Program-made: the position numbers and the translations under genes
Assembly (NCBI RefSeq): GCF_025960875.1
Contig: NZ_JAODLR010000007.1
Coordinates: forward strand, 1 to 64,000
Length of the DNA: 64,000 nt
From: Crystallibacter permensis
GTDB lineage: Bacteria; Actinomycetota; Actinomycetes; Actinomycetales; Micrococcaceae
Direction of reading: 5' to 3'
The notes under the pieces: generated by a model
The model's database searches: none
Told to the model about the DNA's origin: nothing
The model's input: only the letters and a program-made list of their open reading frames with translations
In this document: in pieces, positions 689 through 45,889 of the stretch
How the letters are laid out: each line of letters opens with the position of its first letter
How positions within the stretch are numbered: the first letter of the stretch is position 1

Positions 689-749
689 ATAAAGGGTTTA
701 TTGCAATGCTAAGCAATACAGCTGCAAGCACTTTGAAGTACCGTAACCG

Positions 750-820: not shown

Positions 821-874
821 GTGGCCTGCAGATTCAGGACCGGCCAGTAGAACTGGCACTTACAGTGACTTGCG

Positions 875-948
875 AGCGGACGACGGGATTCGAACCCGCG
901 ACATCCACCTTGGCAAGGTGGTGCTCTAGCCAGCTGAGCTACGTCCGC
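875..948 (-). tRNA. tRNA-Gly(GCC), second copy
   Basis: This gene is identical over 74 nt to the tRNA-Gly at 510-583 (anticodon GCC) but lacks the encoded CCA. It is the promoter-proximal gene of the five-tRNA minus-strand cluster. Confidence 0.97.
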
Positions 949-1248
949 ATGTGGATTTCATCAAGTTTACCTCCGGTCTGACCGGAACGTTTTCTCGATT
1001 TCCAACGAGTAAAGACTCTATAGGACGTTTTCCGCTTCGTCCAATCGAGGGTTCGAGAGCCGGTTTTGCAGCTCATTCCCGCGTCCAGAAGGGGTGCGCA
1101 ACACGGTCTGAAGTGATGTGAATCTGGACTGGTAGGCCGAGGCACTAGCGCGCCAGCACGACAAAATGCGCCGTTTTTGCGTCGGGGCGAACGTCGGCTA
1201 ACATTCATAAACGATGCAGGTCCGGTTCGCCGGTGCGGGCATCCAGAC
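949..1248 (-). promoter_or_regulatory. Intergenic region with candidate tRNA-cluster promoter
   Basis: No gene lies between the divergent tRNA-Gly (minus) and tRNA-Val (plus). On the minus strand a TAAACT box (964-969) lies about 15-20 nt upstream of tRNA-Gly and is the best -10 candidate for the cluster. No clear -35 box is visible. The rest of the stretch holds nothing I can support. Confidence 0.3.
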
Positions 1249-1320
1249 GGGCGATTGGCGCAGTGGTAGCGCGCTTCGTTCACACCGAAGAGGTCACTGG
1301 TTCGAACCCAGTATCGCCCA
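1249..1320 (+). tRNA. tRNA-Val(CAC)
   Basis: This is a 72-nt plus-strand cloverleaf with acceptor GGGCGAT/ATCGCCC and discriminator A. The anticodon stem CTTCG/CGAAG encloses TTCACAC, so the anticodon is CAC. Its body closely resembles the two GAC valine tRNAs and differs mainly in the anticodon arm and D loop. Confidence 0.97.
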
Positions 1321-1331
1321 CCGTCAGAAGC

Positions 1332-29525: not shown

Positions 29526-29606
29526 GCCCGAGTGGCGGAATGGCAGACGCGCTGCACTCAAAATGCAGTATCGAAAGGTGTGTGGGTTCGAGTCCCACCT
29601 CGGGCA
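29526..29606 (+). tRNA. tRNA-Leu(CAA), prophage integration site
   Basis: This is an 81-nt class II tRNA with acceptor GCCCGAG/CTCGGGC and discriminator A. The anticodon stem CTGCA/TGCAG encloses CTCAAAA (anticodon CAA), and it has a long variable arm and T loop TTCGAGT. A phage integrase begins 76 bases downstream and reads away from it, so its 3' half is almost surely the attachment core, restored by the phage after integration. Confidence 0.97.
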
Positions 29607-29608
29607 CC
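29580..29608 (+). other. Presumed attL core in the 3' half of tRNA-Leu
   Basis: Phage tyrosine integrases commonly recombine within the T arm and acceptor end of a tRNA. The T-arm-to-acceptor part of tRNA-Leu is therefore the expected core, and a second copy should lie at the right prophage end, outside this window. The exact borders cannot be read from one end alone. Confidence 0.5.
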
Positions 29609-29681: not shown

Positions 29682-30797
29682 ATGGCAAGCGTGGGGGAAC
29701 GTAAACGAAAAGACGGCAGCACCGCCTACTGGGTGAGGTGGCGCAACGCCGACGACGGCAAGCAAACCAGCTACACCACGGACGACAAGCAGGCAGCCGA
29801 GCTGGTCCAGAGAATACTGAATGCCAACGGGCAATCATTGACAGCCCTCGAGAACATTCTCGAAGAGATCACACCTACCGGCCCCACAGTGGCCGAAGTC
29901 ATCGAAGAGCATATCGACCTGCTGATGCGTGCCACACCGCAGACGGTGCACAACTACCGGAAAATGCTGGACCTCCACCTATCGGATCTTGGCCGGCTGA
30001 ACGTTGAAGAGCTCGGCTACCGGGACGTTGCGTTATGGGTGCAGGACATGCAACGGAAGCCCCGCTCAGCGAAGACCATTAGGAACGTGCACGGGCTCCT
30101 ATCCTCAGCCATGAACACGGCGGTGAAACTGCGCTACCGGGCGGATAATCCGTGCGATGGGATCGCGTTACCGTCCACAGAGTCCAAAGGGGATAAGATG
30201 CAGGCGCTCACCTCGGATGAGTACAAGCTGGTTCGGGAGTGCATCACCCCGGAGCATCGCATATTGGCCGATTTTCTGGTGTACACGGGTGCCAGGTTCG
30301 GTGAAGCCACCGCCGTAGGCGTCTCGGACATTGATCTTGGGTCCGCGCCGGCGCTGGTGCGGATCAACAAGGCGTGGAAGCGGTCAGGGTCCAGCGGGCA
30401 TTACATTGCGGAGCCGAAGACTGCGACGTCGAAGCGCACCGTGTCCATCCCGTCCCGGCTCGCGGACGAGCTCCGGGAACATGTCGAGGGTGTTGGCCGT
30501 AGCGAGCTCGTGTTCCAGTCGCCGAAGGGCGGGAGGCTGCCGCACGTCCTGTTCTGGCGTGACGCATGGACACCCGCCATACGGGACGCTCAGCGCCTCG
30601 GACTGGAAAAGGACCCGACACCCCACGATCTGCGCCACACGTCCGCCAGCTGGCTGCTGGCCGCCGGCCTGCCCCTGTTCGAGGTATCGCGCAGGCTCGG
30701 GCACGCATCCGTGGCGATGACAGACAAGGTGTACGGGCATTTCATGCCCGGCTCACAGGGGAACGCGGCCGACATCATGGAAGGCTTGGGCGGGTAG
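29682..30797 (+). CDS. int: Phage tyrosine integrase
   Basis: The integrase recombines the phage and tRNA-Leu attachment sites. The 371-residue protein has an N-terminal arm-binding domain (about 1-50), a SAM-like core-binding domain (70-165) and a catalytic domain with R205 (TGARFGEA), a lysine in the PKTATSK hairpin, H315 and R318 (HDLRHT), H341 (LGHAS) and the nucleophile Y351 (DKVYGHF). It is read away from the tRNA toward the lysis genes and stops at a shared terminator. No excisionase gene is adjacent. Confidence 0.96.
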   Translation: MASVGERKRKDGSTAYWVRWRNADDGKQTSYTTDDKQAAELVQRILNANGQSLTALENILEEITPTGPTVAEVIEEHIDLLMRATPQTVHNYRKMLDLHLSDLGRLNVEELGYRDVALWVQDMQRKPRSAKTIRNVHGLLSSAMNTAVKLRYRADNPCDGIALPSTESKGDKMQALTSDEYKLVRECITPEHRILADFLVYTGARFGEATAVGVSDIDLGSAPALVRINKAWKRSGSSGHYIAEPKTATSKRTVSIPSRLADELREHVEGVGRSELVFQSPKGGRLPHVLFWRDAWTPAIRDAQRLGLEKDPTPHDLRHTSASWLLAAGLPLFEVSRRLGHASVAMTDKVYGHFMPGSQGNAADIMEGLGG

Positions 30798-30868: not shown

Positions 30869-31159
30869 TTACTTTGGTTCGGCGCCGAGCCCGATGCGGG
30901 TGAGTAGCGCGTTGACTCCGGGGATGGCGGCGATGCGTGCGAGGGCGCCGGCCACGAGCGTCACGGTGGCGGCAGCTGCGAGCAGCCATGCTGTCACGGA
31001 TTCAGGTAGGACCGCGCCGAGTTCTTCGGCGAGGATGTTGAGCACCTGCGGGATGACGATGAGCACGAGCGCGAAGGCTGGGATGCCCACCTCAAGCACC
31101 GTGCGCAAGGTGGCCTTCCACGGGTAGGCGGTCTGGGTTGTTGCGCGGTGGTCAGCCAT
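30869..31159 (-). CDS. Holin
   Basis: The 96-residue protein has two membrane helices (about 23-45 and 57-80) separated by a short turn with acidic residues, and a short charged N-terminus. This is the layout of a class II phage holin, which opens the membrane for the endolysin at lysis. It is the last late gene and its ATG overlaps the endolysin stop. Sequence family is not certain; the call rests on topology and position. Confidence 0.8.
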   Translation of the reverse strand: MADHRATTQTAYPWKATLRTVLEVGIPAFALVLIVIPQVLNILAEELGAVLPESVTAWLLAAAATVTLVAGALARIAAIPGVNALLTRIGLGAEPK

Positions 31160-32250
31160 TATTCGTTCTCCTGTGTGGTGTCGAGTTCTGCTTTTTCGTT
31201 GGTGGCAAGGTTGACGGTCACGTTCGCGTCGATGGAACCGATGGCGTTCGAGACACCGCGTTCGGCGGCGGCCTCAGCAGCCTTGGCCACACCCTCGATG
31301 AGCTTGGCCTCATCGAACTTCTCCCCACCGGACACAGCCTTGATGGCGCCGATCAAACCAGCGATCTGGCCTTCCAGTGCGGCCTGGCCCTGTTTGAGTG
31401 CGGCGACGCCCATGTTGGCTTGGAACGAGTTCAGGCCGGCGTCGATGAACAGGGCGTACAGGCTGCGGTCGCTGCGGCTGGTGTTGTCGTAGTTCAGCAG
31501 CAGTGACACGGTGCGGTTCGGGATCTTGTTGATCTTGGCGAACACGTCCTCCGTATCGTTTTTGCCGACGTAGGAGTTGGGGAGGTACGCCATGCGCGCC
31601 TCGAAGTCTTCTTTGCTGTCGTACCATGACATGATTTGCTCCATGAGTTGATCGAAACCGGTTTTGATGGGGGTGATGGGTGTCGCGGCCTGCGCCGTGA
31701 CTTTGGTGTTTGCCTTGGCGGTGCGTAACCAGTTCATTCCGCCGGGGAGTCCTGCGGGGTCGATCTTGCCCTGCGTGGACCACTCAAAGTGTGCGATGTC
31801 GAGCTTGTGCCCGTACCCGTCACGGAGTGCGTCACGTAGGACCGGGATGGCGGCCAGCTGTGCCGGCGTCCAGTCGTACGGTGGTAGCCCACTGGATTCC
31901 ATTTCTACGCCGATGAGACGCTGGTTTCCTTCGTCGCGTGGAATGCCCGGGTAGGATCCTGGGCCGGCGTGGTTGCCCCACCCTGCGGCAATGACGTGGG
32001 CGGTGCCGTCCCTGCCCAGTACGATCTGACAAAGCGGTCCTGCTAGGCCAGGCCGCCCGTACATGCATATGTCAAGGGTGGGTGCCCCGTCTGAGTATCG
32101 GGCGGAAGGTGTGGCCGTGTGATGCCAGAGGGTGCCTTGGACGGCAACGAAGGACCACCCGTTATAGCCGCGGGTCTTCCACCCTGGATGCGTTTTGACC
32201 TTTACCCCGCGGCTGCGGAGGACTTCGTCTAAGTCGGTTAGGAATGCCAT
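31159..32250 (-). CDS. Endolysin, N-acetylmuramoyl-L-alanine amidase
   Basis: The 363-residue enzyme cuts the amide bond between muramic acid and the peptide stem. Its Amidase_2 domain (about 1-180) has the zinc ligand motif LWHHTATP (H43, H44), IGVEMES and the later HFEWSTQGKIDP with the third ligand and catalytic lysine. The C-terminal half is an unusual helical region ending in an acidic tail rather than a clear LysM or PG-binding domain. Shine-Dalgarno TAGGAG precedes the ATG. It lacks a signal peptide, so it needs the holin. Confidence 0.92.
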   Translation of the reverse strand: MAFLTDLDEVLRSRGVKVKTHPGWKTRGYNGWSFVAVQGTLWHHTATPSARYSDGAPTLDICMYGRPGLAGPLCQIVLGRDGTAHVIAAGWGNHAGPGSYPGIPRDEGNQRLIGVEMESSGLPPYDWTPAQLAAIPVLRDALRDGYGHKLDIAHFEWSTQGKIDPAGLPGGMNWLRTAKANTKVTAQAATPITPIKTGFDQLMEQIMSWYDSKEDFEARMAYLPNSYVGKNDTEDVFAKINKIPNRTVSLLLNYDNTSRSDRSLYALFIDAGLNSFQANMGVAALKQGQAALEGQIAGLIGAIKAVSGGEKFDEAKLIEGVAKAAEAAAERGVSNAIGSIDANVTVNLATNEKAELDTTQENE

Positions 32251-32954: not shown

Positions 32955-34046
32955 TTATAGGTAGGTTTGGTATGGGGTGAGGTGGCCCCAGTTGGACAGG
33001 TACATGGCGAGGTAGATGCCGCCCGCGATGCATAGCCCAACCTTGTGGAGCCCGGCGTCCCTGCGTCCTGCTAGCTGGTTGGGTATGAGCAGGATGAGGA
33101 AGATGCCGAAGTAGAGTTCCATCCGGTTCACGGCCTCTGACTGGGTGCCGGCAATGAGGAACATGATGCCGATGAGCACGTACATCCCGTACCGCTGGTA
33201 GTGCTGGGACCGGCCCAGCCGCATGGCGTATGCGAGTAGGGCTACCCGTGTGACGATGACAAGGTAGGATCCGAGGCCGACAGCGGCAGCGCCGAGGTAG
33301 GTGTCGTAGCGTTCGTTGAGGCTGTTCAGGAACGTGGACAGGAACGACCATTGCGATATGCCGCCAGCCGCGACCAGTGCGACCACGCCGAGGATGAGTG
33401 CTTTCTTCTTCGTCGGTTTCGCGTTGCGGGCCAGTAGTTGGATCACGGCTACGAGGATCGCGGACGTGTGGAATGTTGCGGCGATGGCGTTGATGATGAC
33501 GAACGCGGTTTTGTTGCGGTCCAGGAATGTTGACGCATAGAAGCTGAGGGATATGGCGATGCCCTGCCGAATAATGTTGAACGGTGCCACGAAGAACGCC
33601 AGCAGCACGTACAGCAGCAGGGACATGGTCGGGTTCAGCGACTGTTTCTTGATGGCCGCGTAGACGGGGATAACGGTGAGCGCGGAGGTCACCCAGAAGA
33701 TGATGCTGGGGTTGTCGGTGAAGCCGCGCAGGAACAGGGACAGCGCCGTGTACCCGATTTCCTGCGGGGACGCCGCTAACTGTCCGGACCAGTCCACAGT
33801 GGAGAGTTCCTGAAACCGTCTGGCGTACATACCGTAGTCCGTGCCCACCTCGTACCGGACAGCGGAGAACGTGACCATGACCGCAATAATGAAGAAGTCA
33901 ATCGGCGTCCACCGCAACACCCTCACCCTGCGCAGTCCGGGGCGCTCAGTGGCCCGCTGGGTTTGTGACCTCGGGGTGTTGCGGATGAACTCGGACAGCC
34001 AGGACAGGAAGCCTGTCGCGGCGGTGACGGCGAAGTATGGGAGCAC
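32955..34046 (-). CDS. EpsG/Wzy-like membrane polysaccharide polymerase
   Basis: The protein of about 363 residues has roughly ten membrane helices and the EpsG family core VRYEVGTDYGMYARRF, followed by IIRQGIAISLSFYA and a late NRMELYFGIFLI. EpsG-like proteins polymerise exopolysaccharide or O-antigen units. In a prophage, next to tail-fibre genes, it is likely a lysogenic-conversion gene that alters the host surface. The GTG at 34046 was chosen because GAAAGGG lies nine bases upstream; a TTG at 34064 is also in frame. It is bracketed by hairpins on both sides. Confidence 0.8.
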   Translation of the reverse strand: MLPYFAVTAATGFLSWLSEFIRNTPRSQTQRATERPGLRRVRVLRWTPIDFFIIAVMVTFSAVRYEVGTDYGMYARRFQELSTVDWSGQLAASPQEIGYTALSLFLRGFTDNPSIIFWVTSALTVIPVYAAIKKQSLNPTMSLLLYVLLAFFVAPFNIIRQGIAISLSFYASTFLDRNKTAFVIINAIAATFHTSAILVAVIQLLARNAKPTKKKALILGVVALVAAGGISQWSFLSTFLNSLNERYDTYLGAAAVGLGSYLVIVTRVALLAYAMRLGRSQHYQRYGMYVLIGIMFLIAGTQSEAVNRMELYFGIFLILLIPNQLAGRRDAGLHKVGLCIAGGIYLAMYLSNWGHLTPYQTYL

Positions 34047-34087
34047 CCCGGATAACCCTTTCAACGGTGTGGTTGCCGGGGGACCAT

Positions 34088-34135: not shown

Positions 34136-36154
34136 CTACATGACCAGCAGGGGCCGCCAGAACCCGTAAACGAAGACGCGGCCGCGGTCATTGCTTACAT
34201 ACACGCGGGCATCGGGGTAGGCGGGAAGGAAGTCCAGCAGGATCACCGACCCGTCAGGCAGGACCGCAAACAGGCCGTTAACGTTGCCGCCGCTGGAACC
34301 GTTGAACGCCACGAAGTAGTAGACGCCGTTGACGGGGTCGATGGCCCCGTAGTAGGGCATGACACCCCAGTGTTCCCCGCCGATCACGGCGCGCCCGGTG
34401 GTGGTGGTCAGGGTTGCCGCCTTGGAACTGTAAACAAATGCCGTGGTCGCGTCTTGCACCGACTGAATGTAGGTGTCGATGGGAACAATGTCCTGACCTT
34501 CGGTGCGGATGCGCGTGCCAACATCCAACGCCGTGAAATTCGCCGTTGCCGACGTGATCTTGTTGGAGCCTTGGGTGGTGGTCAGGTCGGTGATGCGGCG
34601 CGACGGCAGCCCGCCCGGTACGGGCATGTAACGGTGCGAATTTTTGCCGTGCCAGCGCGGCGTATGCGTCTCCCGGTCGATCTTGTATACGACAAGGTGA
34701 ACGGTCGAGTCGGACGCGAAGTAAATCCAGTCCTCATCAAAACTGATCTGCACCGCCTGCCACGCCTGATTCGCGCCGAACGCGGGTTTCTGCCATGTCA
34801 GCCCGTAGTCGGTGGAGTAGTAGACGTACCCGGCACTGTTAGCGTCGCCGGTGGTCATCCAGACGTGGCCGGGGTTGTACGGGTCAACCTCGATGGCGTG
34901 GACGTGCCGCCCGGTGAAACCACCCGGACCTAGCACCCTATCCCAATGCGCGCCGTTGATCGAACGGTACACGGATGGTCCGGCTACGGTGTCGCCGTAA
35001 TCGCCCCAGTAAATGTACTGGTCATCGCAAGCCAGCGCGGTGCTGATGATGTTGGAACCGGCTTCACCGATCAGCAGCGGCGCGGACCACTCAAACTGGG
35101 CGGTACCCGCCTTCGGTGATGCCCGCACGATCATCGGCAGACCGTCCGTGCGCATGATCTGCATGTAGTAGATGCCTTGAAACTTCACCATGGAGACATG
35201 GCCCATGCTGGCAATGTCCGTTTGCGCGTCCGCGGGCAGGTTCTTCGCCACCCAGTTCAACGGGTTCAACTGGGTGTTTTCGTTCTGGCTGAGACCGTAC
35301 TGGTTGACGGCAATCACGGCCTCGGGGAAGACACCGATGATCATTTTGCCGGTGTTCGCCTGCTGCGTCTGCCCCATCGCCTGAGCGGAGGACACGCGCT
35401 TATCCGCCGCCTTGATGGCACTGGCTGTGGTGGCACTTAGTGCAGTGTTGACGGGGTTGCCGGGCGTCTCAATGTAGCCGGCCACAGCGTCTTGTGTTGG
35501 CACGGTGTTCGGGCCGGGTTCGCCCTGCTGCCCGCGCACGTTCCCGGCGACAACTGTTTCACCGTTGTACTTGGTGAGGACCAGGTCATCGCCCACCACG
35601 GCGCCCGTGGTCACGGTCTGCACTGCGGCGGCCTCAGCGTCAGCCGCGGACTGTGCGGCATCCACTGCCGCTGTCTTGGCGACACCCGCTGCAGCTTCAG
35701 CCTGCGGGAGGCCGTAACCCTTGTTCGTGGGGATGGACACAACCGTCGTCAAATCCACGGTGGCATCGGCGGGCAGGTGGAATGATGCGGCGGGGATCCG
35801 GTTCTTGCCAACCGACAGGTCGAATGTGGCGGTCCACGTCCAATCCGTGGTCAGCATGTCCACATCATCCGTGGCAATCAGACGCACACCCCGTTCGCCG
35901 GCGCGGCCCGGGCGGCGCGGCATGGGCGTGCACAAGTAGCCGTCCTTATCCAACAGTCCGATGACGGGTTCGGGGAGGACCGTGACCGGGCCATCCGCTG
36001 CGTCGGGGTTCTGCAAGTACGGGACAGCCGGGGTGAACAGGACGCGCCCTGACGCGGGGCCGCCGTCCGGGTCCAAACCATCATCAACACCGTCACCGGA
36101 TGCGATCAGGAACCGCCCGGCAACAGTGCCGGTAGAAACATTCGTGGGAAGCAT
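34136..36154 (-). CDS. Phage tail protein with Asp-box (sialidase-like) propeller
   Basis: The 672-residue protein has an N-terminal beta domain (1-150), an alanine-rich helical stretch (152-182), a short collagen-like GQQGEPGPNTVPT (208-220), and then a beta-propeller region. Two Asp-boxes are visible, SINGAHW (398-404) and STDYGLTW (447-453). Its first 230 residues are a paralogue of the next gene's. Such propellers bind or cut surface glycans, so it is probably a receptor-binding or depolymerase protein; no catalytic residues can be assigned. Confidence 0.8.
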   Translation of the reverse strand: MLPTNVSTGTVAGRFLIASGDGVDDGLDPDGGPASGRVLFTPAVPYLQNPDAADGPVTVLPEPVIGLLDKDGYLCTPMPRRPGRAGERGVRLIATDDVDMLTTDWTWTATFDLSVGKNRIPAASFHLPADATVDLTTVVSIPTNKGYGLPQAEAAAGVAKTAAVDAAQSAADAEAAAVQTVTTGAVVGDDLVLTKYNGETVVAGNVRGQQGEPGPNTVPTQDAVAGYIETPGNPVNTALSATTASAIKAADKRVSSAQAMGQTQQANTGKMIIGVFPEAVIAVNQYGLSQNENTQLNPLNWVAKNLPADAQTDIASMGHVSMVKFQGIYYMQIMRTDGLPMIVRASPKAGTAQFEWSAPLLIGEAGSNIISTALACDDQYIYWGDYGDTVAGPSVYRSINGAHWDRVLGPGGFTGRHVHAIEVDPYNPGHVWMTTGDANSAGYVYYSTDYGLTWQKPAFGANQAWQAVQISFDEDWIYFASDSTVHLVVYKIDRETHTPRWHGKNSHRYMPVPGGLPSRRITDLTTTQGSNKITSATANFTALDVGTRIRTEGQDIVPIDTYIQSVQDATTAFVYSSKAATLTTTTGRAVIGGEHWGVMPYYGAIDPVNGVYYFVAFNGSSGGNVNGLFAVLPDGSVILLDFLPAYPDARVYVSNDRGRVFVYGFWRPLLVM

Positions 36155-36200: not shown

Positions 36201-38120
36201 TTAGTTCGTCCACTCCACAGGGTCGAGCGCCGTCCAAATGGAACCCGTGGAGCTGTGGTTCAGTTCGATCCCGCCCGTGCCGGATCGGGCAACCACCTGC
36301 GCTGTGACCGCCATGCTCGATGACGCGGTGCGCCGGTACACCCAGTAGGCGGGGGCGAACCCTGGCGGGAAGTCAGCAACCTTCACAGTGGTGGTGGGGA
36401 AGTCCCCGGACGTGGGTTTCACCAGTCCGCGGATCATAGTTTTCCCGTCCTGCTTGCGGACGGCGGGCGCCGGCGAACCCTCAGCAGCGAACCCCGCAGC
36501 CAGAACCAGTGGCACCCAGCCCGTATCCAGGTACGGTCCGGACGATGGTGCGTAGATGGCCAGTGCGTCCGGGGTGGGGCGTGGCGCACCGTCGGAGGAC
36601 GCGACAAGGTACTGGCCGCCCACCATGGTTTGCGCGGACCCGCCGCCATCGAGGATGTACAGGTTGCGGACACCGAGCCGTTCACCGATGGCAACCATGT
36701 GATCGCCCACCGCGCCGGACACGTCAGTGACACCGGGGACGGTGACAATCAGCAGGTTCCCGGCGGTGTCGTCGCCGATCAGCTGCCGGCCGGAGATAAC
36801 CGCATACCGTGCGTACTGGCGGAACCCTGTGACGGCGCCTTCCCGGTACACTGCGGCGCCCCATGAGAACGAGTTCCACCCGCCCTCGGCAACAACTTGT
36901 TCCGGTGTCACCGTTTCGTCGTAAATGCGGAGGGAACCGTCGCGCATAAACACGACGGCTTCCCGGCCGCGGTCCTCATCCGGTTCGTTGTCCCACCCCT
37001 TGATGATGGTCCCGTCTTTGATTTGCAGGCCGATCAACTGGTTTTCCCACCAGCCGCCCAACCGGTATCCGGTGGCGTTGATCAGGATCTGCGCCTTGTG
37101 CTTCGCGTACCGCTGGTCGAGTGTCGAGCGTGGGGGTGTGGGGCTCAGCGAATCATCGGTCGTGAATTTGCGGACAATGCTGCCGCCCTTGGTGCCGCCG
37201 GCAACCTTGGTCACGTAGTGGGCGGGGTAGCCTGCGGCGGCGGGCACGTACTCGGTGGAGTAGGAGACTTTGTTCGCGTTAGCGAGCCGTGTGTTGAACT
37301 GGCCGTTCAGTACACCGTCGAGTGCTTGCTTGGACTGGGTGTCCCCGGTAATGAACCCGGCAACAGCCTGATCGGCTGCTGTGTGCGTGTCTGTGCCGGG
37401 GGTGGTGAGGTTGGTGGCGATGGCCTGATCCGTGGGAACAGTGTTGGGGCCTGGTTCGCCTTGCCGTCCGCGGACGTTGCCGGCGTTCAAGGTTTGCCCG
37501 TTGTGCCGGGTGAGTATCAGGTTGTCGCCGGTGACCGTGCCGGCAGTGACGGACCCCGCCGCATAGGTTTCCGCCCTGCCGGCTGCGTCTTCTGCGTCCT
37601 GCGCGGACCCGGCGGAGGCGACGGCGGCGGAGGATGCGGCGGCAACCGCCGCCTCAGCCTGCGGCAGCCCGTAACCCTCGCTGGACGGGACGGGTGCCGT
37701 CAACGTCAGGTCGAGTGTCACAGCGTCCTGCGGGACGGCGATAGGGTACGAATCCAGTACCCGCCCATCGGCTTTCACGGTGACACGCCACGTCCAGTCC
37801 ATGACCGCCAGCGACTCATCATCCGTGGCGATAAGGTACACGCCGCGCTGTGACGGGTAGTCCGGGTTTTCCGGGTCCGGGGTGCACAGGTAGCCCTCAT
37901 AGTCGAGGACGCCGCGCACCGGGCCGGGCAGCCCGCCACCATAAAACGTGACGGGTGCCGGGGCGGCGGCGGGTGCCGGGATTTTCGACACTTCGGGCAC
38001 AAAATCCACGGTCACCCGCGCAGGCACAGCAGTGGAACCAGTCACTGTGGGGGCGCCGACGCGTCCCGCCAGGAACCGGCCAACCACTTTGACCGTGGAA
38101 ATGTTCTCAGGGAACGTCAT
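36201..38120 (-). CDS. Phage tail protein with phosphodiester glycosidase domain
   Basis: The 639-residue protein shares its N-terminal stalk (GYLCTPxP, LIATDD, GYGLPQAEAA, then GNVRGRQGEPGPNTVPT) with the gene at 34136. It then carries a domain of the phosphodiester glycosidase family (NAGPA/DUF2233): INATGYRLGG (N348), IGLQIKDGTIIKGW and the hallmark LDGGGSAQ (490-497). The last 130 residues look like a beta-sandwich binding domain. Known members remove GlcNAc linked by phosphodiester bonds. Here the likely target is a glycosyl-phosphate cell-wall polymer, which is inference. Confidence 0.85.
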   Translation of the reverse strand: MTFPENISTVKVVGRFLAGRVGAPTVTGSTAVPARVTVDFVPEVSKIPAPAAAPAPVTFYGGGLPGPVRGVLDYEGYLCTPDPENPDYPSQRGVYLIATDDESLAVMDWTWRVTVKADGRVLDSYPIAVPQDAVTLDLTLTAPVPSSEGYGLPQAEAAVAAASSAAVASAGSAQDAEDAAGRAETYAAGSVTAGTVTGDNLILTRHNGQTLNAGNVRGRQGEPGPNTVPTDQAIATNLTTPGTDTHTAADQAVAGFITGDTQSKQALDGVLNGQFNTRLANANKVSYSTEYVPAAAGYPAHYVTKVAGGTKGGSIVRKFTTDDSLSPTPPRSTLDQRYAKHKAQILINATGYRLGGWWENQLIGLQIKDGTIIKGWDNEPDEDRGREAVVFMRDGSLRIYDETVTPEQVVAEGGWNSFSWGAAVYREGAVTGFRQYARYAVISGRQLIGDDTAGNLLIVTVPGVTDVSGAVGDHMVAIGERLGVRNLYILDGGGSAQTMVGGQYLVASSDGAPRPTPDALAIYAPSSGPYLDTGWVPLVLAAGFAAEGSPAPAVRKQDGKTMIRGLVKPTSGDFPTTTVKVADFPPGFAPAYWVYRRTASSSMAVTAQVVARSGTGGIELNHSSTGSIWTALDPVEWTN

Positions 38121-38129
38121 GGGTGCCTC

Positions 38130-39947
38130 CTAGAAAGCGGCGTAAGTGATGCTGGAAATGTCCACCGAAGAGGCGGATGTGGGGAGGCTGATGCTCATCT
38201 GCCCGTAAGCGCGGATCTGCACTTTCGCCCAGCCGTCCACACCGCCGAGCGGGACGGTGAAGAACGAGCCGGCGCCGACAGGGATTTTGGGGCGCGCCTT
38301 ATCGGGGACGTCGCCGACGATGATCCACTGGCCGGCAGGCCAGTTCCCGCCGCCCGCGGGCACGAGCGCCCCGGACAGGGATACGATGCCCGCCCTGACC
38401 ACGCAGCCCGGGGTGTACACGCCGTTGTCTTTCAACGCCACGGATGTGTTGAGTTTCAGCGGTTCAACACCCTGGATGATGGATGAGTCGGGCGCCTGTG
38501 TGACCCGGGCGTAGATGACGCCGACGTCGCCGGCGGTTCGGACCCCGGATGAGTCTGAGGATGGGTGTGTGGTCATGCCGTTGACCATTGTTTGGACGGA
38601 TCCGCCGCCGTCGAGCATGATGGCCTGGTGGCAGCCCTCAGCAGCAGCGAGCGCGGAGAGCCTGTTTCCGCCGGTGCCGGTGTTCGCGGAGGACACGCCG
38701 GTAACACTGATGATGAGGATGTCGTGGTCGGCTGTGACACCTATGACCTGCCGGCCGGAGTACACGCCCGGCGTGGTGAGCGACGTGAAGTCGGTGAGCG
38801 CTTCAATGTCTTGGGCGATGCCGTCGTGCACGAGCAAAGGCCCGAACCCGAACGTGGTTACCACGCCGTCGGCAAGGACTTCTTGCCCGGTCCACCCGTC
38901 TTCCACCTTGTACCCTGCTGCGGTGCCATCTGCCCGGAAGCCGAGTGCGTGCATGCCGCGCTGGTAGGTTTCAAAGTCCCGGTACATGATGCCGTTCTTG
39001 ATTTGGAGGCCGCGGAGCATGTACTGGGTGGGCCGCTCGAGTGTGTCCCAGCCGGTGGCGTTGAACACGATGTCGGCGCCGGAGCGCCCGGCGAACGACT
39101 GCAACGACTCGGCAATCTCCGGGCCGGCTTTGAATGAGTCGCCGCCGGGTGAGGTTAAATGGAAGTCGTTGGCGTACATTTTGTCTATGAGCCCGGGGCG
39201 GGGGCGGCCGCCGCATCGGACCCGGACTACCTCGTACGTGTACCCGTGAACGTGTTTCTTGTACACAATGTTCGCGGTGGGAAGGAACGTTTCGGAGTCC
39301 ACTGGGACGGTGGAGAACGCCTCTGACATGGCTTCACGTACCGGGTTGTCCCCGGCGTCACCGCGCAGGTACGCGGCAAGGGTTTCCTGGTCTTGGACTG
39401 CGCCGGTGGCGTTGTAGCCGGGTGCCCCGCGCAGGGTGCCGATATGTTTGAACTGGCCTTTACCGGTGGATGGTGACCATGCGCCGGCCCGGTATTCGTA
39501 GAGCCGGGACGGGTTGGACGGGTCGTTCGGGTTGAGCGGGTCCTGCTGCAACCACTTCATGAACGGGCGCGGCGACTGCGGGGGGTCCATGGACACCCAC
39601 ACCATGTCCGGGTTCTCACCCTTATGGGAGAGCAGGGTGCCCAACGTGCCGCCTTCACGGGGGACGGTGATACGCCAGTTGGGGAAGTCCAGGTACGTGG
39701 CACCATCGGAGGACGGGCCGAGCATCCTGATTTTCAGCGTGTACCAGCCGCGGTCCACCATGTCCTGCGTGGCTGCGAGCGCGGCTTGGAAGAACCCGTT
39801 AGCGTCGGGTGTAACCACGACAGGGTAGGAGGTGTAGAGGGTTCCGCCTGAGGTGTTGGCCCCGTTGAGGGTGAATATCAGTTCGGGTTCTTTGTGGGCC
39901 AACGGGACGGATGTAATGTCCGTTAGGCGTCCGGTAACAAGCGGCAT
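38130..39947 (-). CDS. Phage tail protein with phosphodiester glycosidase domain (second)
   Basis: The 605-residue protein has a different N-terminal domain (1-110, a beta-sandwich beginning MPLVTGRLTDITSVPLAHKE). It ends in the same enzyme family as its neighbour: FNATGWD (N296), LRGLQIKNGIMYRD and LDGGGSVQTMVNG (445-457). A C-terminal beta domain follows. It is read just before the stalk-glycosidase gene, with only nine bases between them. The two enzyme domains are clearly diverged, so this is not a recent duplication. Confidence 0.85.
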   Translation of the reverse strand: MPLVTGRLTDITSVPLAHKEPELIFTLNGANTSGGTLYTSYPVVVTPDANGFFQAALAATQDMVDRGWYTLKIRMLGPSSDGATYLDFPNWRITVPREGGTLGTLLSHKGENPDMVWVSMDPPQSPRPFMKWLQQDPLNPNDPSNPSRLYEYRAGAWSPSTGKGQFKHIGTLRGAPGYNATGAVQDQETLAAYLRGDAGDNPVREAMSEAFSTVPVDSETFLPTANIVYKKHVHGYTYEVVRVRCGGRPRPGLIDKMYANDFHLTSPGGDSFKAGPEIAESLQSFAGRSGADIVFNATGWDTLERPTQYMLRGLQIKNGIMYRDFETYQRGMHALGFRADGTAAGYKVEDGWTGQEVLADGVVTTFGFGPLLVHDGIAQDIEALTDFTSLTTPGVYSGRQVIGVTADHDILIISVTGVSSANTGTGGNRLSALAAAEGCHQAIMLDGGGSVQTMVNGMTTHPSSDSSGVRTAGDVGVIYARVTQAPDSSIIQGVEPLKLNTSVALKDNGVYTPGCVVRAGIVSLSGALVPAGGGNWPAGQWIIVGDVPDKARPKIPVGAGSFFTVPLGGVDGWAKVQIRAYGQMSISLPTSASSVDISSITYAAF

Positions 39948-39995
39948 GGGGAGCCCCTTTCGGGCGAGGGTCTATGTTTTTGGGCGCGCTATTGG

Positions 39996-40001
39996 TAGCA
40001 T
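39996..40001 (+). promoter_or_regulatory. Candidate -10 box of a leaderless plus-strand phage gene
   Basis: TAGCAT lies 7 nt before the ATG at 40009. The larger context GGTAGCATT...GC-ATG is the same as at the integrase start (29668-29684), suggesting that both genes are read by the same host polymerase form in the lysogen. Confidence 0.5.
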
Positions 40002-40008
40002 TTGGCGC

Positions 40009-40353
40009 ATGAGGAAATTCGGGGGACTCGCTCTTATCGCAGTCGCAGCACTAATCACTAGTAGCGCCACACCACACCAACAGTTGGAACCGGTGGCAGC
40101 AGAACGCGTCGTCGTTCAGGCTCCGGCCTCCGTGCACGGCGACATGCTGGACGACGCCAGGCAGCACTTGACCACGATGGGGGATGCCAGCGACGCCGAG
40201 CTCATCGCCAAGGCTTACGCGGCGTGCGCGTCACTGCTCATCCAAGGCAAGGACGCCTACCGTGAGGCAACGCTTGAGAAGTATGCCGACGTTGAGGAAG
40301 CCCTCGACCATCTGGTGATCGCTGCCGCCGGCAAGCAGTACATCTGCCGCTAG
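40009..40353 (+). CDS. Secreted DUF732-like protein (probable moron)
   Basis: The 114-residue protein begins MRKFGG, followed by a hydrophobic helix (6-20) and an Ala/Ser-rich stretch typical of a signal peptide. The mature part resembles DUF732: small helices with two cysteines (AYAACASLL and a C-terminal YIC) likely to form a disulfide. DUF732 proteins are secreted actinobacterial proteins of unknown role. It is the only plus-strand gene in the tail module, has its own promoter, and its stop overlaps the convergent gene's stop. Expression in the lysogen is inferred. Confidence 0.8.
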   Translation: MRKFGGLALIAVAALITSSATPHQQLEPVAAERVVVQAPASVHGDMLDDARQHLTTMGDASDAELIAKAYAACASLLIQGKDAYREATLEKYADVEEALDHLVIAAAGKQYICR

Positions 40354-41111
40354 GCGGTTGACCTGTACAGTTTCCCGCTGCTGTCCGCGTAGAGGTTCGG
40401 CGCACTCCCCGTGGTGGGGAGGTTGGTTACCCGGACGCCATCACTGGCAACGTCCACGCTGTATGCTCCGGCGAACATGCTGGCCACAGCCCCGGCGAGC
40501 ACGCCGGCGTTTGAGGATCCGCGCAGGGCCACGGTGCCGCCGTTGCCGCCGACACCGCCACCCGAGTTGAAGGTGACGCCACCGTTCGAGGATGACGGGT
40601 CTATGACCGTGTTGCCTGCGGTGATCTTGCCGCCGCTGGTGACGTTCAGGTCGTTCTTGAGTGTGGTCACGCCTTCGACAGAGAGTGTGCCTTTGGTGGC
40701 CATTGGCCCTGTCACATCAAGCTTGCCGGAGATGGTTGCCGGGCCTTTCACCGCGAGGTCGCCGGTAATGGTGGTGTTGCCACCAATTTCCGTAACACCG
40801 TTCAGTTTCGTTGGCCCGGTGACATCGAAGTTCCCGGTTATCTTCGTGTTACCGGAGACTGTCATTGGTCCGGTGATGGTGGTTGTGCCGGTGAAGTTGA
40901 TTGTGCCGTCAGCCTGCAACGTGCCCGTAATCGTGGCCGTGCCTGTAACCTGTAGCGCCCCGTTTTCGATGAGCAGAACGGACCCGTCATAGAACCGCAT
41001 TTGCCCGCGGCCAACAGAGGACGACGACAACGGGGAAGCGTTTTCAAGTCTGCGCAGCCGGCGCAGGATTTCTGCTAGCGTGCCCGCGGTCAGGTCGTTG
41101 AACCTACCCAT
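40350..41111 (-). CDS. Phage tail protein with beta-solenoid-like repeats
   Basis: The 253-residue protein has a short helical start (MGRFNDLTAGTLAEILRRLR) and then about ten imperfect 12-residue repeats of the form (V/I)TGx(T/L)xxxGxTxI (about 50-165). It ends in a Gly/Ser-rich stretch and a small C-terminal domain. Such repeats fold into a rigid triple-beta fibre or solenoid. By position it is a minor tail or fibre protein next to the tail tip. Confidence 0.75.
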   Translation of the reverse strand: MGRFNDLTAGTLAEILRRLRRLENASPLSSSSVGRGQMRFYDGSVLLIENGALQVTGTATITGTLQADGTINFTGTTTITGPMTVSGNTKITGNFDVTGPTKLNGVTEIGGNTTITGDLAVKGPATISGKLDVTGPMATKGTLSVEGVTTLKNDLNVTSGGKITAGNTVIDPSSSNGGVTFNSGGGVGGNGGTVALRGSSNAGVLAGAVASMFAGAYSVDVASDGVRVTNLPTTGSAPNLYADSSGKLYRSTA

Positions 41112-41112: not shown

Positions 41113-42183
41113 TCATCCGCCCTTCTGCTGGAATTCGATGGTCACCCATTCACCTAGGCTGCCCTTGATTTTCACAATCTCCCACTCCCGGTAACCCTCC
41201 GTGATATAAGGGTCCTTCCGCATGTTCCACCGCACAGTCGTGCCCGGTTGGAGTGAACTGATGGGATGGGCGCCGCCGGCAAGAACATCGAAACCCGCCT
41301 GCCGGGTAGCCGAGTTATTCGCCCGCAACGATTCACGGGCCAGGCTTTGCAGTTCCCCGGACTTCTTCACGTTCTTGAACGACTCCACCCGTTCGAGACC
41401 CGGGTAGAACAGGGTTTCCGTGGTGGAGGACCGGATGAGCGTGTCCACTTCGGTGCCTTCACCAACCGCGTAAACTTTGGTGGCCACTTCGGAGGCATCG
41501 GTTTTGATCCACAAACCGCGGGCCTGCGGGTCGTCGGCGGCGAAATCGTATTCCGCCCGCCCGTGCGTGAGGTCGCCGACACGCATAACCCATTCGAGGG
41601 TGCCGTTGCCAGCCCACCGTGGCAGGAAGTCCACGTCCGGGCCGCCGTCGGCTTCCATGATGTCGCCGAGCCCTTCGGTGACGGTCATCATGTCGTACCC
41701 GTAGTACACGCGGTCCTCAGTGCCGGACTTATCTGAGGGCAGCACCAAGGGGAGGGCGAACCTGCCGGCGCCCCACTGGGCAACAAGCGTTTTCACTGCC
41801 TGCGTTTCGAGGGACAGGTTGTTGAACGTCATTTTGGTGTCGGCCAGATCGCCGGACCAGTCGCGTATCATCAGCCGGCGTTCCAGCATGGACCACAGGT
41901 CACCGTGGCTGAGCTGTAGTGTTTGATCGTCCATGGTGTAGGTGGCGTCCCAGATGATGCCAGCGTAAACGACGGTGCCGTCCCAGTCGGCGACGATGGC
42001 ACGTTCCCCGGGGTAGAGGTCGGTTAGCCCGGCCGTTTCGGCTACCATGGGGTCGCCTAGTTTGAAGCTGGCGTTACCGGATTCGCCGTGGTTTTTGGCT
42101 CGGCCCCAGGTCATGGATTCTGGTTCCACTTTCACACGGTCGCCCCATGTGATGGTGGAGAGCGTGTAGACGTTCCATGCCAT
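41113..42183 (-). CDS. Minor tail protein, Gp37/Tal-like hub
   Basis: The 356-residue protein starts MAWNVYTLSTITWGDRV and has the fold pattern of ReqiPepy6 Gp37-like tail hub proteins. An N-terminal beta barrel is followed by a segment with YYGYDMMTVTEGLGDIMEADGGPDVDFLPRW, and a C-terminal domain is rich in beta strands. It lies right after the distal tail gene, the standard place of the tail-associated hub. No lysozyme or peptidase motif is visible. Confidence 0.75.
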   Translation of the reverse strand: MAWNVYTLSTITWGDRVKVEPESMTWGRAKNHGESGNASFKLGDPMVAETAGLTDLYPGERAIVADWDGTVVYAGIIWDATYTMDDQTLQLSHGDLWSMLERRLMIRDWSGDLADTKMTFNNLSLETQAVKTLVAQWGAGRFALPLVLPSDKSGTEDRVYYGYDMMTVTEGLGDIMEADGGPDVDFLPRWAGNGTLEWVMRVGDLTHGRAEYDFAADDPQARGLWIKTDASEVATKVYAVGEGTEVDTLIRSSTTETLFYPGLERVESFKNVKKSGELQSLARESLRANNSATRQAGFDVLAGGAHPISSLQPGTTVRWNMRKDPYITEGYREWEIVKIKGSLGEWVTIEFQQKGG

Positions 42184-42192: not shown

Positions 42193-42933
42193 TTAGATGT
42201 AGGTGTCGATGAGTTCGCAGGTGACGGTGGCGGTGCCACTGGTCACCGAGATTTCGAGGGTGTCGCGTTGGCCGGGGTCAACGAGCATGATCCTTGAGGA
42301 TGAGACGCCGCCGGTGACGAGCGCACCGTTGACGCGGAGTCTGCCGTCCCGGTAGTTGATGGTGTGGGGTTGGCTCGATGTGAGTGCCCGTGTGACGGTG
42401 AACGCTTGCCCAGCAATTTTGATGGTGTACCCCGGCGCCGAACCTGTGACCGTGAGGAACGGTGTGGCCTGGTAGTTGCCTTTATGGTGGATCGCCGTAT
42501 TCGCCAACGGGGCGGCGGTAAACGTGCGTTTCTCCCCGAATTTGCGGGGGTCGCGGGCCTTCACCCTGACCTGCCATTGCGCGTACGTGTCCGTGATTGG
42601 CGTGAACTTCACCCCGGTGGACCGGACAGCCTGGCACCACAGTTCAGGTCCATGTCCGGCCACTTGGAAGCGGCCGGACATGGCACCGGTCAGCCAGGTC
42701 ATGGCCTCATGAGTTTCATCGTGGGACTGGGTGTGCAGTCCACCGGTGACGCTGATGAGGCGGGCTTGGTTATAGACAGGGAGTTCGTATTCGCCGTCGG
42801 CGTTCGGGCGGTCCGCGTCCTCGCCCTTGGGTTCGGGGGAGTCCCACCAGCCTTCAAGACTGGTGGTCACCCATGTTCCGTACCTGTCGGTGCCGGAGAG
42901 TGTGCGTCCAGCCCACATGATCTGGTCAGCCAA
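42193..42933 (-). CDS. Distal tail (Dit-like) protein
   Basis: The 246-residue protein follows the tape measure gene and overlaps it by eight bases. It contains a conserved Dit/minor tail pattern: an early VTGGLHTQSHDETHEAMTWL and WQVRVKARDPRKFGEKR, then a C-terminal beta-sandwich (galectin-like). It caps the tail tube and anchors the tip proteins. Confidence 0.8.
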   Translation of the reverse strand: MADQIMWAGRTLSGTDRYGTWVTTSLEGWWDSPEPKGEDADRPNADGEYELPVYNQARLISVTGGLHTQSHDETHEAMTWLTGAMSGRFQVAGHGPELWCQAVRSTGVKFTPITDTYAQWQVRVKARDPRKFGEKRTFTAAPLANTAIHHKGNYQATPFLTVTGSAPGYTIKIAGQAFTVTRALTSSQPHTINYRDGRLRVNGALVTGGVSSSRIMLVDPGQRDTLEISVTSGTATVTCELIDTYI

Positions 42934-45889
42934 GGCGCACCCCGTTCTGTTGGAACTTCCACTGGATTTCGTCTACTACGGCGCGGCGGACCGCGTCGGC
43001 GTCGGTGGCGCCTTGAATTACGATGCCGCCGAGGTCGATGCGGGTCCCACCGCCGCCGGCTGCAGCGATCTGCTGTGCTGGGGCGTACATGGAGCCAATC
43101 TCCCCGCCGTTCGCGTGAGCGGTCACCCGCCCGGTGCGCAGCTGGTTGCGGAACTGGTAGACAGCCTGCTGGCCGCCCATCAAATCCACTTCCTGCGCGG
43201 TGAGCACATGCTCACCCTTGGCACCGATGAACAGTTGGGAGTCAACACCCTTCGGCCCCGGCGCAATATCCAAGTCACCGCCGCCTGCACGTCCCGGCAG
43301 TTTCAGTCCGAGCCGTTCAGACACGGAAGCGCCCTCAGGTAATGGTGCGGAGGGGAAGGGGATGCCGTGGGTTTCGAAAGTGCGGATGAACTTGGTGTGC
43401 ACTTCCTTGTATCCGGGGATGTTCTCAACCGACTCTTTCGTTTCGTCGGCTGTGCGTTTGGCTTGTTCGTCCATCCACGTGTCAATGTCCACACCGTCCG
43501 GCACACCAAGGATTTTGCGTGCCAGCGTTTCTGCCGCCTCACCTGTGATGCCGAATTCGCCGGCGGTTGCGATCAGATCGTCATACGTGCCGGACAGTTT
43601 CTCCTGCAACACGTCCTGGCCCATGCCTTCCTCAGCCAGTGCTTTGACCTCGGCCATGCCGTCCTGTGCGAGGCCTTGGAACGTGTCGTTAGCCAGCCTG
43701 CCGGCCTCGGTGGTCAGGTCGAAGTCCGACTTGTTCTTGTTGAGGGTATTGCCCATTTCGCCGCCGGACTCGTTGATCGTCTTGATCGTCTCAGACACCG
43801 AATCAAGTGTCTCTTGGTACTGGGCGTGGGCGTCCCTCGAGTTCATGGTCAGGATTCCGGCAGCGAACAGCTGCTCCAAGAACTTATCCATGTCCTCGAT
43901 CACGCCACCGAGGGCGACACCCGTTTCCTCGATCGCGCCAGCCATTACCTCTTGAGCGGCGGCAGCAGTCACAGCTTTAGGATCAGCGTCACCCATGGCG
44001 GCGTTCAGGATTTCCTGATCCGTTGCCGTCCCGCCAGCGGCGATCGCGGTGGCAATCAGCTGGTCCTTGTACTGCGGGAACAGATCGAGGACATCCTCGA
44101 GCTCCATGCCCTGCGCGGTGGCTTCGGTGGCGATCTGCTTGAACGCTTCCGCAGCCTGATCCGTGTTCCCGCCGGTGACCATCTGGCCGAGTGACGAGTC
44201 CACGGCGTCAACCGAGTCGACAATGTCCTGCATGTGGGACGGCAAACCGAACGTTTTTGAGAGCGACAACTGGAATTGATTGAACCCATCAAGGGAACCA
44301 ACATAGTTGACCGCGTCGCCCACACCGTTTATCTCGGTGGACAGGAACCCTGTCCGGGACACCATCTCATCCAAGCTCGCGGTGCTACCGGCGTCACCCA
44401 TTTTCAGGAGCTCGTTGGTCATCTCCTGAATGGTGGGCACACCACTATCGCGGAGCGCGTTGATGCTCGCACCCGCGATGCCCAGGGCAGCGATCGCGCC
44501 CGCGGCTACGCCAGCAGCTTTACCTACCTTGCCGAGCGTCCCGGGGATCTTGGACCCGGAAGCGTTCAACGTGCGGAACGCTTCCCGCGTTTCAGCGATC
44601 TTCGGGATCAAAGTGAGCGCGGCACCGCCAAGCAACGCGGCGCCACCGGTGAGCCCGGCGAACACGGTCACCGCGTCCTGCACAGGGTTAGGGAGCGAAC
44701 CGAACCCGGCCGCCAGTCCAGACACAGCCTCAGCCACACCCTGGACTACCGGCAGCATCACAGCGCCAGCGTCGATCGCGGCGTCCTTGATGCCGTTCCA
44801 CGCCACCTGGATTTTCGCTTCGGTCGTCTCGTACCGCTTCTGGGCTTCCTCAGCGAGAGCAGAGTTCTCTTCCCATGCCTTAGCGCCGAGGTCCAAGGAT
44901 TCGGTGAGCAGGTCGCCTGCGCCGGCCAGCCGGAGGATGACCGAGGTTTCTTCCGTGCCCTTGATGCCGAGGTCGGACATGGTTTCGATGACGTTGCCAC
45001 CGGATTCCTTGATCCCGTTTAGGCCCTTGATCATGGTGTCGGTGGCGCGGACAGGGTCGTTCTCGAACGCGGTGGCGAACTCGGATGCAGACATCCCGGC
45101 GACGTCGGCCAGATTATGGAGTCCTTCGCCGCCTTCCATGACGTCCGCGTACATGCGCTGCATGACCCGGGACATGACACCGCCGCCAAGCTGGGCCTCG
45201 ATGCCTACGGATGCCATGGCGTTAGCCATTGCGAGCAGATCGGATTCGCTGGCGCCCACCAGTTTCATGGCGCCGGAGAGCCGGGAAGCCATGCCCACGA
45301 TTTCAGCTTCCGTGGAAGCACCGTCGTTACCGAGCGCGACCAGCGCTGCGCCGAAACGCTGCACCCCGCCGGACCCTTCGCGTGCCATGGTACCCATGAC
45401 GTTGCTGATCTGGGCGATGCTCGTGGCGGCTTCGTCCGCGGTCAGGTTCGTGGTTTCGGACAGGTCGATCATGGTTTTCGTGAAACCGACGACGTCCTCG
45501 CGTGCCACGCCTAGCTGGCCGGCGGCCTCAGCCACGCCAGCGATTTCCTCGTGAGTGGCGGGAAGTGTTTTCGCCAGGTCCCGCAGTGATCCTTCGATGG
45601 CGGCCATCTGCTCGGGGGTGCCGTCAACTGTTTTCGTGACACCGGCCCATGCGGTTTCCCAGTCCATGGCGGCCTTGGTGGCGGCGCCTAGCCCGGCAAC
45701 AGCGACGGCACCGAAACCAAGCATCACACCGCCGGCCTGCTCCATGGCCTGATGGTTGTCTTTGACGGACTTCCTGGCTTGCGCGGCTTTCTTGGCTAGA
45801 TTGTCGGTTTCGGTGGCGGCTTTCCCTAGCCCGGCAACATATCCGCCGACTTGGGCTTCGAGCCTGACGATTACCGAGCGTGCCGCCAT
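42926..45889 (-). CDS. Tail tape measure protein
   Basis: At 987 residues this is the longest phage gene. It starts with a coiled-coil (LEAQVGGYVAGLGKAATETDN), then the TP901-type core with AMDWETAWAGVTKTV and AEAAGQLGVAREDVVGFTKTM. Hydrophobic helices lie in the middle (about 380-480), and a long helical C-terminus follows. It fixes tail length and is ejected with the DNA. By the usual 0.15 nm per residue the tail should be near 150 nm. No lytic transglycosylase motif is seen. Confidence 0.95.
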   Translation of the reverse strand: MAARSVIVRLEAQVGGYVAGLGKAATETDNLAKKAAQARKSVKDNHQAMEQAGGVMLGFGAVAVAGLGAATKAAMDWETAWAGVTKTVDGTPEQMAAIEGSLRDLAKTLPATHEEIAGVAEAAGQLGVAREDVVGFTKTMIDLSETTNLTADEAATSIAQISNVMGTMAREGSGGVQRFGAALVALGNDGASTEAEIVGMASRLSGAMKLVGASESDLLAMANAMASVGIEAQLGGGVMSRVMQRMYADVMEGGEGLHNLADVAGMSASEFATAFENDPVRATDTMIKGLNGIKESGGNVIETMSDLGIKGTEETSVILRLAGAGDLLTESLDLGAKAWEENSALAEEAQKRYETTEAKIQVAWNGIKDAAIDAGAVMLPVVQGVAEAVSGLAAGFGSLPNPVQDAVTVFAGLTGGAALLGGAALTLIPKIAETREAFRTLNASGSKIPGTLGKVGKAAGVAAGAIAALGIAGASINALRDSGVPTIQEMTNELLKMGDAGSTASLDEMVSRTGFLSTEINGVGDAVNYVGSLDGFNQFQLSLSKTFGLPSHMQDIVDSVDAVDSSLGQMVTGGNTDQAAEAFKQIATEATAQGMELEDVLDLFPQYKDQLIATAIAAGGTATDQEILNAAMGDADPKAVTAAAAQEVMAGAIEETGVALGGVIEDMDKFLEQLFAAGILTMNSRDAHAQYQETLDSVSETIKTINESGGEMGNTLNKNKSDFDLTTEAGRLANDTFQGLAQDGMAEVKALAEEGMGQDVLQEKLSGTYDDLIATAGEFGITGEAAETLARKILGVPDGVDIDTWMDEQAKRTADETKESVENIPGYKEVHTKFIRTFETHGIPFPSAPLPEGASVSERLGLKLPGRAGGGDLDIAPGPKGVDSQLFIGAKGEHVLTAQEVDLMGGQQAVYQFRNQLRTGRVTAHANGGEIGSMYAPAQQIAAAGGGGTRIDLGGIVIQGATDADAVRRAVVDEIQWKFQQNGVRLG

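What the first reader, a model, noticed from the sequence alone, without database searches (positions are those of the whole stretch)
36201..39947. Phage depolymerases likely aimed at glycosyl-phosphate wall polymers
The NAGPA/DUF2233 domain cleaves sugar-phosphodiester bonds. Arthrobacter-type walls are known to hold poly(glycosyl 1-phosphate) and teichoic polymers, so these virion enzymes would fit that target. Two diverged copies suggest two bond types. Such a use in tail fibres is not well described to my knowledge.
Basis: partly seen in the sequence, partly recalled or inferred. Interest (0 to 1): 0.75.

Follow-up and report, generated by a model that had tools for sequence, protein, structure and literature searches.

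The report
Twin sugar-phosphate-cutting phage tail fibres
A dormant virus in a soil-type bacterium carries two tail-fibre-like proteins, each with an intact-looking enzyme domain of a kind that cuts sugar-phosphate bonds, probably to grip or chew through the host's wall polymers; the domain is already annotated in other viruses, but what it cuts there was not found in the papers searched.

Summary

Novelty is limited: phage genes with this domain are annotated (SPbeta yomE, Staphylococcus phage EW), and the Ayka paper names a spike with predicted acetylglucosaminidase activity. Less usual are two strongly diverged copies on two anchors in one tail. The boldest open reading is that such enzymes cut the sugar-1-phosphate bond tying wall polymers to peptidoglycan.

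The parts
38130..39947 (-). gpB, tail-fibre-like protein with NAGPA domain (605 aa)
   Evidence: gene order
39393..39947 (-). gpB residues 1-185: anchor module shared with Glutamicibacter phage BIM BV-113 and prophages of the host's family
38499..39293 (-). gpB NAGPA catalytic domain, residues 219-483
38598..38612 (-). gpB DGGGS motif, residues 446-450
38133..38498 (-). gpB C-terminal part, residues 484-605; no relative among the loci held
   Evidence: low model confidence
36201..38120 (-). gpA, tail-fibre-like protein with NAGPA domain (639 aa)
37311..38120 (-). gpA residues 1-270: anchor module, 46% identical over 258 columns to the start of the next fibre (34136-36154)
36546..37274 (-). gpA NAGPA catalytic domain, residues 283-525
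36636..36650 (-). gpA DGGGS motif, residues 491-495
36204..36545 (-). gpA C-terminal tip, residues 526-639, weakly like part of the Ayka spike
   Evidence: E 2.7e-8 for the whole sequence in a small local set, 31.4 bits
34136..36154 (-). Third fibre gene (672 aa): same anchor type as gpA; core 47% identical to Gordonia phage Thing3 gp25 'glycoside hydrolase'; BNR match below Pfam's cut-off
40350..41111 (-). Tail-associated protein upstream of gpB (253 aa), weak matches to structural and tail families
41113..42183 (-). Minor tail protein
   Evidence: phrog_1885 E 2.5e-37
42193..42933 (-). Dit-like minor tail protein
   Evidence: phrog_5577 E 5.2e-34; SPP1_Dit E 0.022, below cut-off
42926..45889 (-). 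Tape measure protein
   Evidence: phrog_13339 E 1.7e-210
31159..32250 (-). Endolysin (Amidase_2)
29582..29607 (+). Left attachment repeat in the tRNA-Leu 3' end; second copy at contig position 78106-78131, outside the window

Best explanation
gpB and gpA are two tail-fibre or baseplate-appendage proteins of a temperate tailed phage (prophage). Each is built as an N-terminal anchor, a NAGPA-fold glycosyl-phosphodiesterase domain and a C-terminal part. On the virion they would meet the host's surface glycopolymers and hydrolyse the sugar-1-phosphate bond inside or at the base of those polymers, as a receptor-reading and receptor-clearing step before peptidoglycan degradation and DNA entry. Shown here: the domain, its fold match to NAGPA, the kept residues, tail gene context, exchange of cores on the same anchors, and host genes for phosphate-linked wall polymers. 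Inferred: presence in the virion, catalytic activity, the polymer cut, and any division of labour between the two enzymes.
Against: No activity data for any phage member of the family was found in the searches made. No virion proteomics. Stealth genes are common in the family (170 of 295 genomes). Phages of Escherichia and Erwinia also carry the domain, so it is not tied to Gram-positive wall polymers. Some positions conserved elsewhere differ: gpB has N318 where guinea-pig NAGPA and four phage enzymes have D; of 21 positions invariant in 15 other phage rows gpA and gpB keep 17 each, and one Q is V in gpB and D in gpA. N- and C-terminal parts of both models are of low confidence. The published catalytic residues could not be read.
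Confidence: 0.6

Rival explanations
1. One or both domains are lectin-like binders that keep the fold but cleave little; the fibres only recognise a sugar-phosphate polymer.
For: gpA and gpB are strongly diverged with long branches and differ at some positions conserved in other phage rows. Tail fibres often bind without cutting (general knowledge).
Against: Most positions shared by guinea-pig NAGPA and four other phage enzymes are kept, with N, two R, DGGGS and a later D in both. Cores found with the same anchors elsewhere are enzyme-like.
Confidence: 0.2
2. The enzymes act on a capsule or exopolysaccharide with sugar phosphates rather than on a wall-anchored polymer.
For: Stealth proteins are recalled as capsule and exopolymer hexose-1-phosphate transferases and the host has three matches. 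NAGPA domains occur in Escherichia phage proteins, one annotated as a tail spike. The prophage also carries an EpsG-family gene, the only one in the assembly.
Against: The host cluster also holds TarF/TarL/TarS-like wall-polymer genes. The structure of the host's polymers is not known to me.
Confidence: 0.3
3. The genes are not virion parts but cargo secreted by the lysogen to remodel its own surface.
For: The prophage carries other possible cargo (EpsG-family gene at 32955-34064). NAGPA proteins of six other places in genomes of the family look like exported proteins without tail genes nearby.
Against: gpA and gpB lie inside the tail gene block on the same strand; gpB's anchor is shared with a Glutamicibacter phage and gpA's anchor type, through the third fibre, with Arthrobacter phage minor tail proteins.
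Confidence: 0.06

Closest known systems
SPbeta YomE (Bacillus phage SPBc2)
   Same: Phosphodiester glycosidase family protein, encoded downstream of the tape measure and of yomH/yomG/yomF; 32.9% identical to gpA over residues 301-525; groups with gpA, gpB and the Ayka spike in the tree
   Different: One place per record, different N- and C-terminal parts
Curtobacterium phage Ayka gp10 tail spike
   Same: NAGPA domain in an annotated tail spike of a phage of an actinobacterium; 31.7% identical to gpB over residues 254-550; its paper states predicted acetylglucosaminidase activity (passage)
   Different: phi29-related phage, one place, no match to the gpA or gpB anchor at E 1e-3
SPO1 gp2.43 and Staphylococcus phage EW ORF005
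   Same: NAGPA domain proteins of phages of Gram-positive bacteria
   Different: On another branch of the tree
Vertebrate NAGPA (uncovering enzyme) and Bacteroides DUF2233 protein 3ohg
   Same: Fold of the catalytic domain; for guinea-pig NAGPA also most of the shared positions
   Different: Not phage proteins; the vertebrate enzyme removes a GlcNAc from GlcNAc-phosphate-mannose (passages)
phi29 p12 appendage
   Same: Tail appendage that takes part in recognising wall teichoic acid (passage in PMC11476376)
   Different: Described there as structurally like other tail spikes; NAGPA is not mentioned in that paper's main text

Membership tests
NAGPA / DUF2233 phosphodiester glycosidase (PF09992) | Profile match over the curated cut-off | tested here: met
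   49.3 and 65.5 bits against 25
NAGPA / DUF2233 phosphodiester glycosidase (PF09992) | Catalytic-domain fold | tested here: met
NAGPA / DUF2233 phosphodiester glycosidase (PF09992) | Conserved active-site residues | tested here: inconclusive
   Of 21 positions identical in guinea-pig NAGPA and four other phage enzymes gpA keeps 19 and gpB 18; which are catalytic was not read, as the paper is not held
NAGPA / DUF2233 phosphodiester glycosidase (PF09992) | Hydrolysis of a sugar-1-phosphodiester | not testable with these tools
   needs enzyme assay
Phage tail-fibre / tail-spike depolymerase | Encoded in the tail module with a phage anchor | tested here: met
   gene order, shared anchors
Phage tail-fibre / tail-spike depolymerase | Present in the virion | not testable with these tools
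   needs proteomics of induced particles
Phage tail-fibre / tail-spike depolymerase | Degrades a host surface polymer | not testable with these tools
   needs assay on host polymer
Glycerophosphodiesterase-type teichoic acid depolymerase (GDPD) | GDPD domain | tested here: not met
   only NAGPA matched in gpA and gpB at E up to 0.1 in Pfam

The most novel reading that the evidence does not exclude
Tail NAGPA enzymes cut the sugar-1-phosphate bond that anchors wall glycopolymers to C6 of muramic acid, so that the virion detaches whole polymer chains at the base. The vertebrate substrate, GlcNAc-phosphate on C6 of mannose, is chemically close to that linkage unit (recalled), and phages of Staphylococcus aureus carry the domain although the teichoic acid main chain there is recalled to have no sugar-1-phosphate bond. 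In this prophage the two enzymes could split the work: one on the main chain, one on the anchor.
Probability: 0.15. Interest if true: 0.72.

Novelty: new member of a known kind. Interest (0 to 1): 0.4.

Why it matters
Phosphate-linked wall polymers are main phage receptors in Gram-positive bacteria (general knowledge), and enzymes that cut sugar-1-phosphate bonds in them would be useful for mapping those polymers. If active, gpA and gpB give a direct test of whether phage NAGPA domains, present in dozens of phage records but without a known substrate in the papers searched here, act on the main chain or on the anchor of wall polymers.

Tried and rejected
Rejected: a chance motif (profile E-values and fold match); recent capture of the domain from the host's own family (16 NAGPA proteins from genomes of the family form one separate branch; their surroundings were not checked, and long branches mean that only the separation is used); a GDPD-type enzyme (no GDPD match).

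Correction made on checking: my first comparison counted positions identical in guinea-pig NAGPA and six phage enzymes, gpA and gpB among them, which made 'both keep all 17' true by construction. One search repeats it with gpA and gpB left out of the choice of positions; the figures used here are those.

Checked late: six further NAGPA places that had given no locus (two in G085, one each in G135, G176, G136, G034) were fetched; in 6 of 6 the ORF has no match to the window's tape measure, Dit, minor tail protein or anchors within 16-18 kb, and the starts look like exported proteins by eye. The remaining unfetched places were not examined, so other NAGPA fibres in the family are not excluded.

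Led nowhere: a single-protein scan of viral contigs with gpB found only the window's own prophage. NCBIfam gave nothing for gpA or gpB. PF03808 (WecG/TagA) has no match in the assembly, so the usual ManNAc-GlcNAc linkage-unit enzyme was not found; this counts somewhat against the novel case. Paper searches for Arthrobacter poly(glycosyl 1-phosphate) listed nothing of use (listings only). [quoted passage not shown] No fold match was sought for the N- and C-terminal parts alone.

Rows dropped before counts: from alignments A5 and A6, of 31 loci I used 15; left out were the window's own two (L034, L059), eight near-identical SPbeta-type loci (L037-L044) and the fragmentary, interrupted or weak L053, L058, L060, L061, L063, L064. 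From the tree, the window's own extra copies (L001-L003, L059), L033, the same six weak loci and L035-L045. Sister regions: 14 chosen of the 35 other genomes with a tape-measure match, plus G237; L093 is only 3.7 kb and L101 6.5 kb; G074, G075, G106, G230 and G237 were already known to have the gpB anchor, so the anchor counts are not a random sample; ORFs under 150 aa and heavily overlapping ORFs were dropped by the script.
Full report
What is there. The span holds two complete minus-strand ORFs, gpB (605 aa, 38130-39947) and gpA (639 aa, 36201-38120), followed by a third fibre gene (34136-36154). Upstream lie a tape measure, a Dit-like protein and a minor tail protein, downstream an endolysin. 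An integrase-like gene (29682-30797; named from its sequence by eye, not scanned) sits next to a tRNA-Leu, and a 26-bp copy of the tRNA 3' end recurs about 48.5 kb away on the same contig, so this is most likely a tRNA-integrated prophage. A 48,850-base viral contig in IMG/VR carries both genes at 100% identity.

Residues. Of 21 positions identical in guinea-pig NAGPA and four phage enzymes other than the window's (Ayka, YomE, SPO1 gp2.43, EW9), gpA keeps 19, gpB 18 and both 17. Kept in both are N348/296, R445/399, D491/446 and S495/450 of DGGGS, D510/465 and R514/470 (gpA/gpB). The departures are A to L487 and V to T516 in gpA, and D to N318, M to L430 and V to A472 in gpB. Against 15 other phage rows, three of them near-identical SPbeta-type, 21 positions are invariant and gpA and gpB keep 17 each; among the lost ones a Q is V404 in gpB and D in gpA, and two C-terminal ones in gpB (R, D) depend on the alignment, since gpB R470 aligns in the other one. 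Which residues are catalytic in the literature could not be read. So no clear sign of a dead enzyme was seen, but activity is not shown, and the pocket may differ from that of relatives.

Modules. gpB residues 1-185 are related to a separate ORF of Glutamicibacter phage BIM BV-113. gpA residues 3-257 are 46% identical to the start of the third fibre, whose core resembles Gordonia phage Thing3 gp25, annotated as a glycoside hydrolase (47% over query residues 268-672). I fetched 15 regions from genomes of the same bacterial family: 14 of the 35 other genomes with a tape-measure match and one from the anchor hits. The gpB anchor was found in 5 of 15 and the gpA anchor in 3 of 15, both in the same order in those 3; no region of the 15 had a NAGPA match. 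Five of these regions were already known to have the gpB anchor, so the counts are not a random sample. Fused to or next to these anchors stand a GDSL-type domain over cut-off (L099), a SASA esterase over cut-off (L099), a polysaccharide deacetylase over cut-off (L101), and GDSL-like matches under cut-off (L095, L098, L100). The slot thus takes different surface-glycan enzymes, and this phage has NAGPA there, twice.

Relation of the copies. The domains are 31% identical. In a tree of 35 rows, gpA, gpB, the Ayka spike and SPbeta YomE are split off together (98/93) from SPO1-type enzymes and from 16 NAGPA proteins of genomes of the host's family. gpB pairs with Ayka rather than gpA at 98/69, but these are long branches and the program warns of false joins, so whether the copies came by duplication or separately is open. 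Six more NAGPA places of the family looked like non-phage exported proteins (6 of 6); others listed were not examined.

Host polymers. The assembly has three Stealth_CR2 matches, four Glyphos_transf matches on one contig, among them a 909-aa protein with GT2 and Glyphos_transf domains and a 1149-aa TarF/TarL-like protein with TarS_C1, plus a glycosyltransferase with a TarS linker domain, and three LCP-family matches. The 909-aa layout recalls GgaB of Bacillus subtilis, which takes part in making a sugar-1-phosphate teichoic acid (recalled, not tested). PF03808 had no match. Stealth occurs in 170 of 295 genomes of the family, so this is consistent with the idea and no more.

Who else has it. 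tblastn of gpA and gpB (E up to 1e-5) and of SPO1 gp2.43 and a NAGPA domain from a genome of the family (E up to 1e-4) matches 42, 46, 69 and 70 of 50,697 phage records. In one search, 64 of 69 are named for Gram-positive hosts, 4 are unnamed and 1 is an Erwinia phage; one search has 3 Escherichia and 2 Erwinia phages among 70. No base rate of hosts in the collection was computed. Searches give one place per record; one search gives 73 places in 70 records, so two copies in one phage look unusual but not unique. Among 26 matches at E up to 0.001 in a library of predicted viral structures, several phage proteins are named phosphodiester glycosidase, and some giant-virus and insect-virus proteins appear too (the query model is of low confidence outside the domain).

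Literature. Searches for 'phosphodiester glycosidase' with phage and DUF2233 with phage listed no functional study of a phage member; in the search with YomE none of the 10 papers listed of 281 was on its function by title. on the enzyme's catalytic residues gave no paper that names them in the passages seen. [quoted passage not shown] Passages of the SPbeta review, PMC8270828, describe adsorption to teichoic acid with doubts; its main text does not hold 'YomE'. Passages of PMC12419801 state that NAGPA releases phosphodiester-linked sugars. Passages of PMC12024695 describe the vertebrate enzyme and cite its structure. Passages of PMC11476376 give phi29 p12 as taking part in teichoic acid recognition. 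Das 2013 and Gorelik 2020 were seen only as citations. The library lacks most subscription papers, so absence there is weak.

Verdict. It is a new member of a known kind, with the unusual feature of two diverged enzymes on two anchors. The most interesting open question is whether such enzymes cut the polymer chain or the bond that ties the chain to peptidoglycan. On checking, confidence in the best explanation was lowered from 0.62 to 0.60 because the residue count, made without the window's own rows, shows some departures.

Noticed in passing
window 32955-34064, minus strand: An EpsG-family gene (PF14897, E 2.5e-47) lies between the fibre genes and the lysis genes and is the only EpsG match in the host assembly. 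It may change the lysogen's surface polysaccharide and so block superinfection (inference). Only 1 of 50,697 phage records matches it at E up to 1e-3, weakly.
   Followed up: partly
window 39853-40353, plus strand: A plus-strand ORF runs against the tail genes between gpB and the upstream tail gene; read from an internal ATG (counted as 40009) it starts like a signal peptide by eye. No Pfam match for 40003-40350 at E up to 0.01. Possibly a small exported prophage protein, or no gene at all.
   Followed up: partly
window 34136-36154, minus strand: Third fibre gene with the gpA-type anchor and a core related to Gordonia phage Thing3 gp25 'glycoside hydrolase'; BNR match below cut-off: a third possible sugar-active fibre.
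   Followed up: partly
L099, L100, L101 (related prophages): Same pair of anchors in the same order with different cores, some of them enzyme-like: an exchangeable two-fibre system in prophages of this bacterial family.
   Followed up: partly
L074 and L075 (host contig C3, 164000-200000): Wall-polymer gene cluster with Stealth, two-domain GT2/Glyphos_transf, TarF/TarL-like and TarS-like proteins, a GDPD protein with CBM_6 and a GH25 protein with FG-GAP repeats.
   Followed up: partly
window 394-1322: Cluster of six tRNA genes at the left end of the window, with two Val(gac) and two Gly(gcc) copies.
   Followed up: no
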